Shown in pieces: positions 8,217-12,773 of a DNA stretch of 64,000 bases (its first letter is position 1; each line of letters starts with the position of its first letter). The position numbers were made by a program, and so were the translations under genes. The stretch is from Fibrobacter sp. UWB2. GTDB lineage: Bacteria; Fibrobacterota; Fibrobacteria; Fibrobacterales; Fibrobacteraceae. The notes under the pieces were generated by a model. The model did not search any database. It saw nothing but the letters and a program-made list of their open reading frames with translations, and was not told where the DNA came from. The stretch is from assembly GCF_002210425.1 (NCBI RefSeq), contig NZ_MWQK01000003.1, positions 310,001 through 374,000 on the forward strand, given 5' to 3'.

Positions 8217-9407
8217 ATGCCAGAAAAATTTTCAAAATGGGTCGCATGCTGGGGCAACGCCACATCCATCACCGATCGCAAAGAAGCTACTTACGCTAAA
8301 GACTTGACACTCCGCTATCCGATTCGCGCCTGCTTTTCAGGGAGCAAGTTGCGTTTCCATTTTTCTAACCTCACGGGCACAAACTCCGTACAAATTAGCG
8401 AAGCATACGTCGCAAAGTCCGTGCAATCCCTAGACGCTGCGCAGTCTTCAGCTACATCCGCAAACACTCAAGCATATTCTCCACGCGCAATTACTTTCGG
8501 CGGGCAAACTTCTGCCACCATCCCCGCAGGCGAAGAAATTCTGAGTGACGAGATCCCATTTGACGTGACTGCAGGCGAATCATTCGATGTGAGCCTTTAC
8601 TTTGCAGATTTCACACAAATGAACGCCGGCACAGCTATCACGGGCCCGCTTTCTGGCGGCAAGTACAGCTACGGCAATTTTGCAAAGTCGGCCACACTCC
8701 CCGATGACCTCACGCGCAAAACAAACTGGATTTATTTTCTCAACACGATTGACATTTTCACTGAAGAAAAGAACTTCGCACTTGTCTGTTTTGGCGATTC
8801 CATCACGGCACAAGATTGGCCCGACTACCTCACGCTCCGTTGCGCACGAGAAGGTTTCAACAACGTTGCCATCATTCGTCGCGCTGTGAGCGGCACACGC
8901 ATTCTCCGCGAATACAGTTGCATCACCTACGCCGCTTACGGTCTCAAAGGCGCTACGCGCTTCCCGATTGAAATGAATGTCGCAGGTGCCCGCACGGTCA
9001 TCGTGCAACACGGCATCAACGATATCATCCACCCTGTCGGCGTCGAAGTCAACAAGTTCCGTCCGTGGAGCGATATGCCCACTGCAGACGATCTCATCAA
9101 CGGTGTACGCTCGCTCTACATCACGCACGCGCGCAAACTCGGTCTCAAGATTTATAGCGGCACGCTCCTCCCGATTTACGGTTGGCGCACCTACAACGAA
9201 AATCGCGATATAATCCGCACGGCATTCAATGAATGGCTCCGCACCGCACCGGATTTCGACGGTTGCGTAGACTTCGACAAGGCTGTACGCGGTCACGACG
9301 ATCCGAAAGCATTCGCAGCCGGATTCGACTCGGGCGATCACTTGCACCCGAGCGCCAAGGCGTACGAAGCGATGGCCGAATGCGTCCCCGAAGAATTGCT
9401 GAAATAA
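8217..9407 (+). CDS. SGNH/GDSL-family hydrolase, no visible signal peptide
   Basis: A 396-residue esterase-type hydrolase. The four SGNH blocks can be read: GDSIT with the nucleophile Ser (about residue 197), the Gly block SGTRIL, GINDI with the oxyanion Asn, and DHLHPS with the catalytic Asp-His pair near the C-terminus. The first 180 residues form a beta-rich domain like the jelly-roll found before some carbohydrate esterases. No export signal is seen at the chosen ATG, and no in-frame alternative adds one, so the protein may be cytoplasmic, unlike the two secreted SGNH enzymes further right. Likely substrates are acetylated sugars or other esters, which is an inference from the family. The next gene follows after 38 bases. 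Confidence 0.88.
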   Translation: MPEKFSKWVACWGNATSITDRKEATYAKDLTLRYPIRACFSGSKLRFHFSNLTGTNSVQISEAYVAKSVQSLDAAQSSATSANTQAYSPRAITFGGQTSATIPAGEEILSDEIPFDVTAGESFDVSLYFADFTQMNAGTAITGPLSGGKYSYGNFAKSATLPDDLTRKTNWIYFLNTIDIFTEEKNFALVCFGDSITAQDWPDYLTLRCAREGFNNVAIIRRAVSGTRILREYSCITYAAYGLKGATRFPIEMNVAGARTVIVQHGINDIIHPVGVEVNKFRPWSDMPTADDLINGVRSLYITHARKLGLKIYSGTLLPIYGWRTYNENRDIIRTAFNEWLRTAPDFDGCVDFDKAVRGHDDPKAFAAGFDSGDHLHPSAKAYEAMAECVPEELLK

Positions 9408-9445
9408 ATTTGACACCTGACACGTTAATTATTTATTTTAAAAGC

Positions 9446-10462
9446 ATGAGCTTAAAAAAATCCATTAAGCAACTTCAAAAACGGGAGCACATCACGCAAG
9501 ACGAACTTTTGCGCCGTCTTGGCTGTTCCCGCAGTAGCCTTATGGAACGCAATAGCGATGATGCACAAGCCGCATTCCAACTCGCTTTCGGGAGCGATTC
9601 CGGTCGCATCTCCGAAGCCCCGTCATTCAAGAACGAAGAAGAGCTAGAAAAAATTTTAATGTGGGTTCGCAAGTTCCCCATCCGCGCATTGCAAAAGATG
9701 GGCCACATTCCCGAGAACGTCAAGGACGCAGACCTCGTTCGCGCGGTGTTCAAGTTTATGCAAATCGGGAGCATTGCCGGATTCGAAAATTATTACTGCG
9801 CCACATTGCCATCTGCAAATCCGCAGACATATGCTGCCTGGATACGTCTCGGCGAGCTCCAGGTCAAGCGCTTGGCAACGGAATTCACGCCGGACCGCAA
9901 CGCCATTATTTCTAACCTGAAATTTTTGCGGACAAATACATTTTTCCACAACAAGGATATCCGCAACATCTCCCGCGAAGCGCTCCACGCTTGCGGTATC
10001 GAACTCATCGAAGTAGAACCGTTCCTCACGGCACCCACGCCCATTTGCGCTTTCTACTGGAGAGGCTCACGCCCCGTCATCCAATTCCCGACAACTAAGA
10101 TGGAAGATTCCAAATTTTTGGATGCTTTGTTCCATGCAGTCGGGCACTTGCTTTTGCACGCGAAGCACACCTCGTGCCTGCAACTCGGCGCACTCTCGCA
10201 ACAAGCAAAAATTTCTGAAATGCACGCGGCCCGTCCTGAAGAAATTCTCGAACTTGAAGCCGACCGTTTCGCGCAAGACATTCTCCTCTCCGAAGCCGAA
10301 GAATGCGAGCTCATCTGCTGCGGCCGTTTTAACGAACGCCGTTGCATCCAGCACTTTTCCGGCGTATTCCACGTGCGCCCAGGCATTCTTGTCGAACGCT
10401 TGCAGCAACAAGGCAAGCTCAACCGCCGCACGCTCCTGAACGATTTCAAAATCGCTGTATAA
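9446..10462 (+). CDS. HTH plus ImmA/IrrE-like domain protein with altered HExxH motif
   Basis: A 338-residue protein taken from the ATG at 9446; the frame is open further upstream but overlaps the preceding gene out of frame. The N-terminus has a short helix-turn-helix-like segment (about 12-30). The C-terminal half resembles the ImmA/IrrE (COG2856) metallopeptidase domain found next to XRE-type regulators and HigA-like antitoxins: FHAVGHLLLH around residues 229-238, then ELEADRFAQDILL, which would supply the third zinc ligand. The zinc motif reads H230-A-V-G-H234; the catalytic Glu of HExxH is Ala231. The protein would keep metal ligands but lose peptidase activity, so it is probably a regulator or sensor. 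No toxin or phage gene is adjacent. Confidence 0.8.
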   Translation: MSLKKSIKQLQKREHITQDELLRRLGCSRSSLMERNSDDAQAAFQLAFGSDSGRISEAPSFKNEEELEKILMWVRKFPIRALQKMGHIPENVKDADLVRAVFKFMQIGSIAGFENYYCATLPSANPQTYAAWIRLGELQVKRLATEFTPDRNAIISNLKFLRTNTFFHNKDIRNISREALHACGIELIEVEPFLTAPTPICAFYWRGSRPVIQFPTTKMEDSKFLDALFHAVGHLLLHAKHTSCLQLGALSQQAKISEMHAARPEEILELEADRFAQDILLSEAEECELICCGRFNERRCIQHFSGVFHVRPGILVERLQQQGKLNRRTLLNDFKIAV

Positions 10463-10553
10463 AGGAGAAGCCCGCTCGGAGGCGGGCTTGACAATTAAAA
10501 AAAATCGCGCGCATTTCGTATAAAAGAGAAGCCCGCCGGAGGCGGGCTTGACA
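10463..10553. repeat. Two copies of the CCCG..CGGG-TGACA palindrome
   Basis: Two close copies (10463-10493 and 10524-10553) of a hairpin with GCCCGC/GCGGGC arms ending in TTGACA. The first follows the stop of the ImmA-like gene at once and is followed by AATTAAAAAAA. Together they may also end transcription between two convergent genes. Confidence 0.8.
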
Positions 10554-10581: not shown

Positions 10582-11151
10582 TTAGTAGTTCACAGCAAAG
10601 AAGAGGTTCCAGCTCTTGAAGCCCTTGGTAAAGTCAACCTTCGTAGCAAGGATGTTGAAACCAAAACCGGCTTCGAGCTGAACGGCAGAATTGTGGAAGA
10701 AGTTTAAACCGACTTCACCGCCCAAGCACATACCGAAAGCACCAATCCAGTCGTCAAAGAATGCGTCAACCTGGAAACCAAGACCAATACCGGCGCCGAC
10801 AAACGGACTTACGATTTCATCAAGCGGAGAAAAACGTCCACCGATAAGCATATTGCCTTCAAGTTCCCAGTCCGTGCCAAATTCGGCATGCCAGTTCGAA
10901 ATCGCCGTAATAGCGCCGTGGGTCGTCATTTCCCAAATGTGACCGTAGCGGATAAGCGGAAATGCCGTGACGTGATCCTTTTCAGGATTCTTCACGTCAT
11001 CCTTATAGTTACTCCAGAAAGAAAGGCCAAAACCAGCCGTCTGGAAACTATAAACCGGACGTTGGAGTTTTTTCTCCGGTTCAATAGTGTCGTAGTTCTG
11101 AGCAAATGCCGCAAGGGCGAGGAAAGTAAGGAGTAAAAGTATCTTTTTCAT
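10582..11151 (-). CDS. Predicted outer-membrane beta-barrel protein
   Basis: A 189-residue protein with a clear signal peptide (MKKILLLLTFLALAAFA, cleavage after AFAQ or AFA). The rest alternates short hydrophobic and polar strands rich in Gly and aromatic residues (for example FSPLDEIVSPFVGAGIGLGF) and ends in an aromatic-rich strand, FFAVNY, as in small outer-membrane barrels. No named family is recognised; similar small exported proteins are common in Fibrobacter. It is transcribed away from murJ, with only 29 bases between the two start codons. It converges with the ImmA-like gene, the two being separated by palindromic repeats. Confidence 0.75.
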   Translation of the reverse strand: MKKILLLLTFLALAAFAQNYDTIEPEKKLQRPVYSFQTAGFGLSFWSNYKDDVKNPEKDHVTAFPLIRYGHIWEMTTHGAITAISNWHAEFGTDWELEGNMLIGGRFSPLDEIVSPFVGAGIGLGFQVDAFFDDWIGAFGMCLGGEVGLNFFHNSAVQLEAGFGFNILATKVDFTKGFKSWNLFFAVNY

Positions 11152-11180: not shown

Positions 11181-12773
11181 ATGAATAAAGCCGCTATTAT
11201 TGTTGCCGTTTCGATGCTCCTGAGCCGCGTACTCGGGATTTTCCGTGAAATGCTCCTTGCCCACGCCGCCGGCGTGTCGCTCGAAAAAAACGCCCTTGAC
11301 CTCGCTTTCATGATTCCAGACATCCTGAATCACGTGGTCAGCACCGGATTTTTGTCCATTATATTTATTCCGATTTTCACGGGCTACAAAGTCGCAGGTG
11401 ACGAAAAAGCAGGCTGGAAGTTCTTCAGCAACGTGCTCAACACGTTTGGGCTTGCGCTTTTGATTCTCGTGATTCCGGCGTTCATCTGGATGAAGGAACT
11501 CATCTCGCTCTTGACCGTCGATGGCGTGACGCCCGAGCTTTTGGAACGCGCAACTTATTACGGACGCATTATCCTTCCGGGGCAGATTTTCATCTTTGTC
11601 GGCAGCATCCTTGTCGCGGTTCAGCACACTCGCAAGCAGTTCCTGATTCCCTCCCTCACTGGTCTTATTTACAACATCGCCATTGTGGGCGGCGGTGCCG
11701 CAGGCCTTGCCCTCACGAATTACACCGGCAACGATTACGGTCTCGCCGGATTTGCCTGGGGCGTTCCGGTCGGCGCATTCATCGGATTTTTCGCACTCCA
11801 GATTTTTGGCGCCAAACGTGGCGGCGTCCATTATGAATTTATCATTGAACCGAAGCACCCAGATATCGCGCGCTATTTCAAGATGATGCTCCCGATGTCT
11901 CTTGGCGTGGGTTCCATGTTCGGCCTTGAATTTATCATCCGTAGCTTCGGTGCAAACTTTGGCACAAGCGGCATTTCGAGCCTCAACTACGCTTACCGCG
12001 TCATGTACACGCTCGTTGCCGTCTTTGGATTCTCGGTCAGCGTCACAAGCTACCCCGACATGGCGCGTCTCGTCAAGGAAGGCGACTTCCCACAACTCAA
12101 CCGCAAAATCTGGAAAAGCCTCTCGCGCATGTTCTGCATTTTGATTCCGGCAGTTGTCGCCGTGTGGGCTTTGAGCTTCCCGGCCGTGCGCATCCTCTTT
12201 GAACGTGGCGCATTCCACCGCGAAACGACCGAAGCGATTTCTGAAATTCTCCGCTGGTACTTGCCCGTGAGCCTTGGGCTTTGCCTGCAGGCGGTTCTCG
12301 TCCGCAGCTTCTACGCTTGCGAACGCATGTGGGTCCCGACACTTTTGAACACCGGCATTTTTGCAGCGACCATCCCGGCCTACATTTTGCTTGGCGCCCC
12401 AGAAGTGGGGCTTGGCATCAAGAGCGTCCCGATTATTGGCGCTACAGGCGCCATCCTGCAAGTGATTTCGATGATTTTCATGTGGGCTAAAAAGAACGGC
12501 ACCGACGGCATGAAAGAAGCGCTTTTCAACATGGCACGCGCGCTTATCGCATTTGGCATCATGATTGCAGCCGCAGTCGGCCTTGATCACATTTCTGGAG
12601 ACTTTGTCCGCAATTCAGGATTTGTAACGCTCGTCGTTTACGCCTGCGCTGCAGGAATCGCGCTCTTTACGCTCACGCTCATCATCCAGCGTTACCTCGG
12701 CAGTAAAGACGCGAAGGACATCCTGAACGAGCTTTTAGGAAAGGTTCTCCGCAAGCTGCATTTGGCTCATTAA
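11181..12773 (+). CDS. murJ: Lipid II flippase MurJ (MviN family)
   Basis: A 530-residue inner-membrane protein of the MVF/MOP superfamily that moves lipid II across the membrane for peptidoglycan synthesis. The N-terminus has the family signature (SRVLGIFREMLLA, then DLAFMIPD), and about 14 hydrophobic segments span the whole length. Basic and Pro residues line the first helices as in known MurJ proteins. Length matches the family. The gene is alone on its strand; the nearest upstream gene is divergent with only 29 bases between starts, so its promoter must lie inside that gene or it has a very short leader. A palindromic repeat follows the stop. Confidence 0.95.
   Translation: MNKAAIIVAVSMLLSRVLGIFREMLLAHAAGVSLEKNALDLAFMIPDILNHVVSTGFLSIIFIPIFTGYKVAGDEKAGWKFFSNVLNTFGLALLILVIPAFIWMKELISLLTVDGVTPELLERATYYGRIILPGQIFIFVGSILVAVQHTRKQFLIPSLTGLIYNIAIVGGGAAGLALTNYTGNDYGLAGFAWGVPVGAFIGFFALQIFGAKRGGVHYEFIIEPKHPDIARYFKMMLPMSLGVGSMFGLEFIIRSFGANFGTSGISSLNYAYRVMYTLVAVFGFSVSVTSYPDMARLVKEGDFPQLNRKIWKSLSRMFCILIPAVVAVWALSFPAVRILFERGAFHRETTEAISEILRWYLPVSLGLCLQAVLVRSFYACERMWVPTLLNTGIFAATIPAYILLGAPEVGLGIKSVPIIGATGAILQVISMIFMWAKKNGTDGMKEALFNMARALIAFGIMIAAAVGLDHISGDFVRNSGFVTLVVYACAAGIALFTLTLIIQRYLGSKDAKDILNELLGKVLRKLHLAH

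What the first reader, a model, noticed from the sequence alone, without database searches (positions are those of the whole stretch)
10120..10160. ImmA/IrrE-like protein with HAVGH in place of HExxH
The zinc-ligand histidines are kept but the catalytic Glu is Ala231 (GCA, one base from GAA). The third-ligand region ELEADRFA is also kept. This suggests a metal-binding but inactive pseudo-protease, perhaps a sensor.
Basis: seen in the sequence. Interest (0 to 1): 0.5.

Follow-up and report, generated by a model that had tools for sequence, protein, structure and literature searches.

The report
Disarmed antitoxin-protease, likely gene regulator
A protein in rumen Fibrobacter bacteria descends from a toxin-antitoxin protease but has lost both its cutting residue and its toxin partner, and has kept a metal-type site and gained a set of fixed cysteines, so it probably now works as a sensor that controls genes rather than as an enzyme.

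Summary
Window 9446-10462 (+) encodes 338 residues with HAVGH where relatives have HExxH. Of 80 Fibrobacter genomes searched, 28 carry a clear orthologue and 0 of 28 has Glu231 (A 23, V 2, T, M, Q). All 33 HExxH homologues that I aligned have it, 26 of them from the same genus. The family is one clade (100/100) under purifying selection (dN/dS 0.17; 0.05 in the C-terminus). Its HExxH relatives are HTH-M78 fusions; the one tested in PADLOC matches PD-lambda-2B. A HigB-like gene lies directly upstream of 25 of 33 of them, against 0 of 28 here. Likely history: Glu and partner lost before the genus diversified, then a solo gene, usually near murJ, with a patchy distribution. Metal ligands H230/H234 plus E or C at 269 persist in 24 of 28; both lineages that lost H230 lost position 269 too. 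C287, C291 and C300 are invariant, C244 and C292 nearly so. A conserved promoter box hints at self-regulation. Most likely it is a non-proteolytic HTH regulator sensing metal or thiol state, in parallel with PrpR. Catalytic inactivity is well supported; metal binding, sensing and targets are inferred.

The parts
9446..10462 (+). Pseudo-protease gene, 338 aa: HTH + M78-like domain without catalytic Glu + Cys-containing C-terminus
   Evidence: orthologues; model pLDDT 87.5
9452..9544 (+). N-terminal helix-turn-helix (residues 3-33)
   Evidence: HTH_11 E 6e-4, below Pfam's cut-off; helices 3-14, 18-25, 29-33
10133..10147 (+). HAVGH (H230-H234), degenerate HExxH; A231 at 10136-10138
10250..10252 (+). 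E269, presumed third metal-ligand position (E 17, C 7, D 2, A 1, G 1 of 28)
10175..10177 (+). C244 (27 of 28; also C in 11 of 33 HExxH homologues)
10304..10345 (+). Cysteine cluster C287-X3-C291-C292-X7-C300 (28, 28, 26, 28 of 28)
10286..10459 (+). C-terminal helical region, residues 281-338, the most constrained part (dN/dS 0.05)
9410..9439 (+). Promoter/operator-like box TTGACA-N18-TATTTT ending 6 nt before the ATG; the ACGTTAATTA...TATTTT part is the conserved part
8217..9407 (+). GDSL hydrolase, frequent upstream neighbour
   Evidence: Pfam; synteny
10582..11151 (-). Small outer-membrane-like protein, convergent neighbour (no Pfam hit in the window copy; the name is my reading of the sequence)
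11181..12773 (+). murJ, frequent downstream neighbour
   Evidence: TIGR01695 E 1.4e-64, 218.6 bits, below its cut-off of 235.55

Best explanation
The gene descends from the second gene of a HigB / HTH-M78-peptidase pair (PD-lambda-2A/B type). Before the genus Fibrobacter diversified, the lineage lost the HigB-like partner and the catalytic Glu, which turned the peptidase into a non-cutting domain; in most genomes that have it, it sits near murJ. The protein now most likely acts as an HTH transcription factor whose pseudo-M78 core and cysteine-bearing C-terminus sense a signal by a non-proteolytic route: metal at H230/H234/E269, or metal, Fe-S or thiol chemistry at C244/C287/C291/C292/C300. It probably controls at least its own promoter. 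Shown: the missing Glu, one clade, sequence constraint, absence of the partner gene, the conserved promoter box. Inferred: metal binding, sensing, DNA binding, self-regulation and the order of the losses.
For: 0 of 28 orthologues with Glu231 against 33 of 33 aligned HExxH homologues with it; one clade, 100/100; dN/dS 0.171 overall and 0.050 in the C-terminus, over the 10 pairs of 5 close sequences. HigB-like ORF directly upstream of 25 of 33 HExxH homologues and 0 of 28 family members; PF05015 passes in 2 of 4 such ORFs tested. The family profile matches the profile of 19 HExxH homologues over 327 columns, prob 100, E 1.4e-40. PADLOC PD-Lambda-2_B: E 5.2e-5 for the window protein, 3e-34 for its HExxH relative L052. 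In print, PD-lambda-2B alone is toxic and A rescues (PMC9519451, passages), so a partnerless copy might be tolerated only if disarmed (my inference). IrrE E83Q, the same motif position, is inactive (PMC5552922, passages). PrpR is IrrE-like in structure, lacks HEXXH and uses four Cys for [4Fe4S] (PMC6765138, passages). The 7 best VIA rows are CapP, IrrE/PprI and PrpR chains (codes 6D2S, 6CYJ, 6CZ6 are PrpR). Promoter: mean agreement 13.8 of 16 over 31 positions against 10.4 of 16 at 54 fourfold sites; the 30-nt box occurs once in the genome at up to 3 mismatches.
Against: No DNA-binding, metal or expression data. The HTH match is below Pfam's cut-off. Fold matches are modest (best Z 7.5, rmsd 5.0, 155 aligned; 0 Foldseek rows at E<=0.001). 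H230 and the E/C at 269 are gone in 4 of 28, so the old metal site is not needed by every member; 2 events cannot show covariation (sign test p 0.5). C244 is Cys in 11 of 33 HExxH homologues, and 26 of 33 of these have no aligned residue at 291 and 300, so the other cysteines are compared with only 7 relatives. One member (L016) lacks C244, two lack C292. The gene is absent from many Fibrobacter genomes (9 changes on the murJ tree of 42), so it is dispensable. The -35-like hexamer is exact in only 5 of 16, and a conserved promoter does not prove self-regulation.
Confidence: 0.6

Rival explanations
1. Solo antitoxin: the protein still neutralises a HigB-like toxin encoded elsewhere (an anti-addiction or decoy role).
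For: Homology to HigA-type fusions (TIGR02607 passes in its HExxH relative L052); antitoxin-type HTH.
Against: No PF05015 match in the window's own genome (control rings in 4 of 14 genomes) and no match there to one Fibrobacter HigB-like protein (which has no positive control); the HTH is less constrained (dN/dS 0.20) than the C-terminus (0.05).
Confidence: 0.12
2. Partner of active M78 proteases: it regulates or inhibits a catalytically active paralogue, as pseudoenzymes often do.
For: HExxH paralogues exist in other genomes of the genus (26 of the 33 aligned homologues are same-genus).
Against: The window's genome has no PF06114 match (control rings in 7 of 14) and only one match to the family profile, the gene itself, so the gene persists there without a detected active paralogue.
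Confidence: 0.08
3. Decaying relic with no function.
For: Decay of the zinc site (H230 lost in 4 of 28) and patchy presence.
Against: 28 of 28 frames open, dN/dS 0.17 and 0.05 in the C-terminus, conserved promoter box.
Confidence: 0.05
4. Still a hydrolase with an unusual catalytic base (another acidic residue, or the metal alone).
For: H234 is invariant (28 of 28), and H230 plus E or C at 269 remain in 24 of 28.
Against: Position 231 is not fixed to one residue (A, V, T, M, Q), and the Glu83 mutant of IrrE is inactive in print (PMC5552922, passages).
Confidence: 0.08

Closest known systems
PD-lambda-2B (HigA-HTH / peptidase fusion of the PD-lambda-2 defence system)
   Same: Same architecture, and homology through HExxH relatives; PADLOC E 5.2e-5 for the window protein, 3e-34 for relative L052.
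   Different: No catalytic Glu (0 of 28), no upstream HigB-like gene (0 of 28), fixed C-terminal cysteines, usually a chromosomal place near murJ.
PrpR (IrrE-like transcription factor of M. tuberculosis)
   Different: PrpR binds [4Fe4S] by C363 and C447-X2-C450-X4-C455 and CoA between DIII and a GAF-like domain; here the spacing is C-X3-C-C-X7-C and only 58 residues follow the core. Sequence searches of the PDB gave no PrpR chain.
IrrE/PprI and CapP (M78 proteases)
   Same: M78-type core: CapP Z 7.5, 3dte Z 6.0.
   Different: IrrE has an active HEXXH and cleaves a separate repressor, DdrO; here HTH and core are one protein and Glu is gone.
Rir of Streptococcus thermophilus (as described in PMC7907104, passages)
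   Same: Said to act on its repressor without cleaving it.
   Different: Rir keeps a predicted HEXXH site and acts on a separate repressor, Crh.

Membership tests
M78 / COG2856 (IrrE N-terminal-like) peptidase | HExxH with catalytic Glu | tested here: not met
   0 of 28
M78 / COG2856 (IrrE N-terminal-like) peptidase | Sequence homology to M78 members | tested here: met
   hhalign prob 100, E 1.4e-40, to a profile of 19 HExxH homologues; two of these genes, read from L052 and L055, pass PF06114. The window protein alone gives no PF06114 hit
M78 / COG2856 (IrrE N-terminal-like) peptidase | M78 fold | tested here: inconclusive
   CapP, IrrE/PprI and PrpR are the 7 best VIA rows, Z 5.3-7.5, rmsd 5.0-6.2, 137-156 aligned; all under Z 8
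M78 / COG2856 (IrrE N-terminal-like) peptidase | Zn binding by His, His, Glu | not testable with these tools
   Residues H230, H234 and E269 are present in the window protein; binding not measured
PD-lambda-2B / HigA-M78 fusion | HTH fused to a C-terminal M78-like domain | tested here: met
   HTH by Pfam only below cut-off
PD-lambda-2B / HigA-M78 fusion | HigB-like gene directly upstream | tested here: not met
   0 of 28, against 25 of 33 HExxH homologues
PD-lambda-2B / HigA-M78 fusion | Peptidase motif HExxH | tested here: not met
PrpR-type regulator | HTH + IrrE-like domain lacking HEXXH | tested here: met
   PrpR's property
PrpR-type regulator | C-X2-C-X4-C plus one distant Cys for [4Fe4S] | tested here: not met
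   Spacing here C-X3-C-C-X7-C plus C244
PrpR-type regulator | CoA or acyl-CoA binding | not testable with these tools
   no binding data

The most novel reading that the evidence does not exclude
A defence-type HigB/peptidase pair was disarmed in Fibrobacter by loss of the partner and the catalytic Glu. The orphan then evolved a new cysteine-ligated metal or Fe-S centre (C244, C287, C291/C292, C300), which makes it a housekeeping redox or iron sensor: a second, independent conversion of the M78 protease fold into a Cys-cluster transcription factor after PrpR.
Probability: 0.27. Interest if true: 0.72.

Novelty: new variant of a known kind. Interest (0 to 1): 0.5.

Why it matters
It offers a natural series within one genus: active HExxH pairs with a HigB-like partner, a partnerless form without Glu that keeps its metal ligands, and forms without the old metal site. 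It makes testable the idea that a partnerless PD-lambda-2B-like protein persists only when its peptidase is dead, and that the M78 fold has more than once been turned from a protease into a cysteine-based sensor.

Tried and rejected
Read error: rejected, 28 of 28 orthologues lack Glu. Pseudogene: rejected by dN/dS and open frames. Regulation of an active M78 paralogue, or of a HigB toxin, in the same genome: none detected in G000, though an empty search is not proof. A regulon sharing the promoter box: only the gene's own site at up to 3 mismatches; a 13-nt core at up to 1 mismatch gave 2 forward and 0 reverse hits against 1 and 1 for the reversed-pattern control, so no regulon is claimed. Homology of the C-terminal cysteines to PrpR's: not supported by spacing, and the family profiles found no PrpR chain in the PDB by sequence. 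E269/H230 joint loss: complete over 28 rows (Fisher p 5e-5, which ignores kinship) but only 2 independent events (sign test p 0.5), so suggestive only. A first AlphaFold model on 22 sequences (pLDDT 79.4, weak C-terminus) was replaced by one on 54 (pLDDT 87.5); both gave the same kinds of PDB match.

Papers: the searches listed no paper on this Fibrobacter family. The lists are capped (6 to 20 rows), the word-start search for IrrE mostly caught words such as 'irreversible' by my reading and says little, and most subscription papers are not held. A review of inactive metallopeptidases (PMC11266112) has no mention of M78, IrrE or ImmA (word search of its text).

Rows left out before counts: the 33 HExxH homologues omit second copies of the same genes (L055, L056, L057, L064, L082, L083, L133), L087, L098 and L103 (all HE..H) and L089 (truncated, no motif seen); several weaker places listed were never fetched. 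In one search the 8 of 33 without a HigB-like hit are L029, L059 (only 210 bases upstream), L090, L093, L095, L099, L100, L102; the test wanted an ORF of 70-200 aa ending near the start and BLAST E<=1e-3, so some may be missed. dN/dS uses 5 of 28 sequences. The murJ tree uses 20 of 28 gene-bearing genomes and 22 of the other 52.

Full report
What is there. The gene is window 9446-10462 (+), 338 aa. H230-A231-V-G-H234 lies at 10133-10147. The start codon lies 6 nt after a TTGACA-18-TATTTT promoter-like box. Pfam sees only a weak HTH below its cut-off, NCBIfam gives no match at E<=0.001 (two weak ones at up to 10); PADLOC finds PD-Lambda-2_B at E 5.2e-5 and RmrA at 0.003-0.009. AlphaFold2 on 54 sequences gives pLDDT 87.5 and pTM 0.88: an N-terminal HTH, a helical part, an alpha/beta M78-like core at about 150-280 and a helical C-terminus at 281-338. 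The 7 best VIA rows are CapP (Z 7.5, rmsd 5.0, 155 aligned), IrrE/PprI and PrpR (Z 5.3-6.0). These Z values are below 8, so the fold match supports but does not decide; the profile comparison with HExxH homologues (prob 100, E 1.4e-40, 327 columns) is the stronger link.

Family and distribution. In one search, 49 of 80 genomes of the genus matched the family profile at E<=0.001. 28 of them have a match at E<=1e-125, and these form the family; of the weaker matches, those whose sequences I read are HExxH paralogues, bar one truncated piece. In the phylum search 30 of 167 genomes matched at E<=1e-20: the same 28, and two outside the genus whose proteins have HExxH (L132 and the gene of L023). 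The genus is Fibrobacter: 16 of 17 named records that hold the gene are so titled, 1 of 17 is Fibrobacterales. The commonest setting is a GDSL hydrolase upstream, a small outer-membrane-like gene beside it and murJ downstream; in some genomes (for example G032 and G033) gene and murJ lie apart. G004 lacks the gene between the same neighbours although its MurJ is 97% identical. On the murJ tree, presence (20) and absence (22) need 9 changes (shuffled mean 14.3), and both sides of its midpoint root hold gene-bearing genomes. This fits an old gene lost repeatedly; transfer is not excluded.

The missing glutamate. 0 of 28 orthologues have Glu231: A 23, V 2, T 1, M 1, Q 1. H234 is invariant, H230 is kept in 24. 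All 33 aligned HExxH homologues have H, E, H. The 28 form one side of a branch against the 33 (100/100). The simplest reading is one loss before the genus split. In IrrE the E83Q change in the same motif is inactive (PMC5552922, passages).

What is kept instead. Position 269, presumed third ligand, is E in 17 and C in 7; in the four members that lost H230 it is D, D, A, G. Agreement over 28 rows is complete, but on the tree it is two events. It fits a metal site kept without catalysis in most members and dropped as a unit in two lineages. C287, C291 and C300 are in 28 of 28, C244 in 27, C292 in 26; 25 members keep all five and 3 keep four. No HExxH homologue has Cys at 287, 291, 292 or 300, but 26 of 33 have no residue aligned at 291 and 300; C244 is Cys in 11 of 33. 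Residues 281-338 are the most constrained region (dN/dS 0.05, against 0.17 overall and 0.21 for residues 151-248).

Origin. 25 of 33 HExxH homologues have a HigB-like ORF directly upstream, 0 of 28 family members do; two of four such ORFs tested pass PF05015. One HExxH relative (L052) passes TIGR02607 HigA and hits PD-Lambda-2_B at 3e-34. PD-lambda-2 is a HigB-like A, an Xre-peptidase B and a third protein; B alone is toxic and A rescues it (PMC9519451, passages). Fusions of Xre and COG2856 domains next to RelE-type toxins were noted in 2009 (PMC2701414, passages). Loss of partner and loss of Glu together are what one would expect if a partnerless active copy is harmful. This is inference, and the order of the two losses is unknown.

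Likely mechanism. Upstream of the ATG, 31 positions agree in 16 close orthologues at a mean of 13.8 of 16, against 10.4 of 16 at 54 fourfold-degenerate sites in the gene. TATTTT stands at the same distance from the ATG in 15 of 16, whereas TTGACA is exact in 5 of 16. The 30-nt box occurs once in the genome at up to 3 mismatches. HigA-type proteins commonly repress their own operon (recalled). I propose an HTH regulator acting on its own promoter, switched by metal, Fe-S or thiol state rather than by proteolysis. PrpR is the precedent: an HTH protein with IrrE-like structure, no HEXXH, and a [4Fe4S] cluster on C363, C447, C450 and C455 (PMC6765138, passages). Cysteine spacing and domain make-up differ, so membership in that group is not claimed.

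Limits. No bench data; cysteine distances could not be measured; the neighbours' roles are untested; MurJ scores below its curated cut-off.

Noticed in passing
window 10466-10551: Two near-identical GC-rich hairpins (GAAGCCCGC...GCGGGCTT) between the gene and the convergent outer-membrane-like gene; the same kind of element is seen downstream of several orthologues (for example L002, L006, L068, L070), perhaps a dispersed terminator-like repeat of Fibrobacter.
   Followed up: partly
window 9434-9448: The -10-like hexamer ends 6 nt before the ATG, and 15 of 16 close orthologues have TATTTT at that distance: the transcript may be leaderless.
   Followed up: partly
L013, L015, L017, L019, L020, L073, L081, residue 269 (window numbering): The presumed third metal-ligand Glu is Cys in 7 of 28 orthologues, with at least 3 changes of this label on the tree.
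   Followed up: yes
G024:C1:621184-621816: A second, partial murJ-like frame (MurJ residues 315-528) lies about 15 kb from the full murJ in one Fibrobacter genome.
   Followed up: no
L053:7460-8212: An ORF next to a HigB-like/HExxH pair resembles a REP-associated or IS200-type transposase (my reading, not searched).
   Followed up: no
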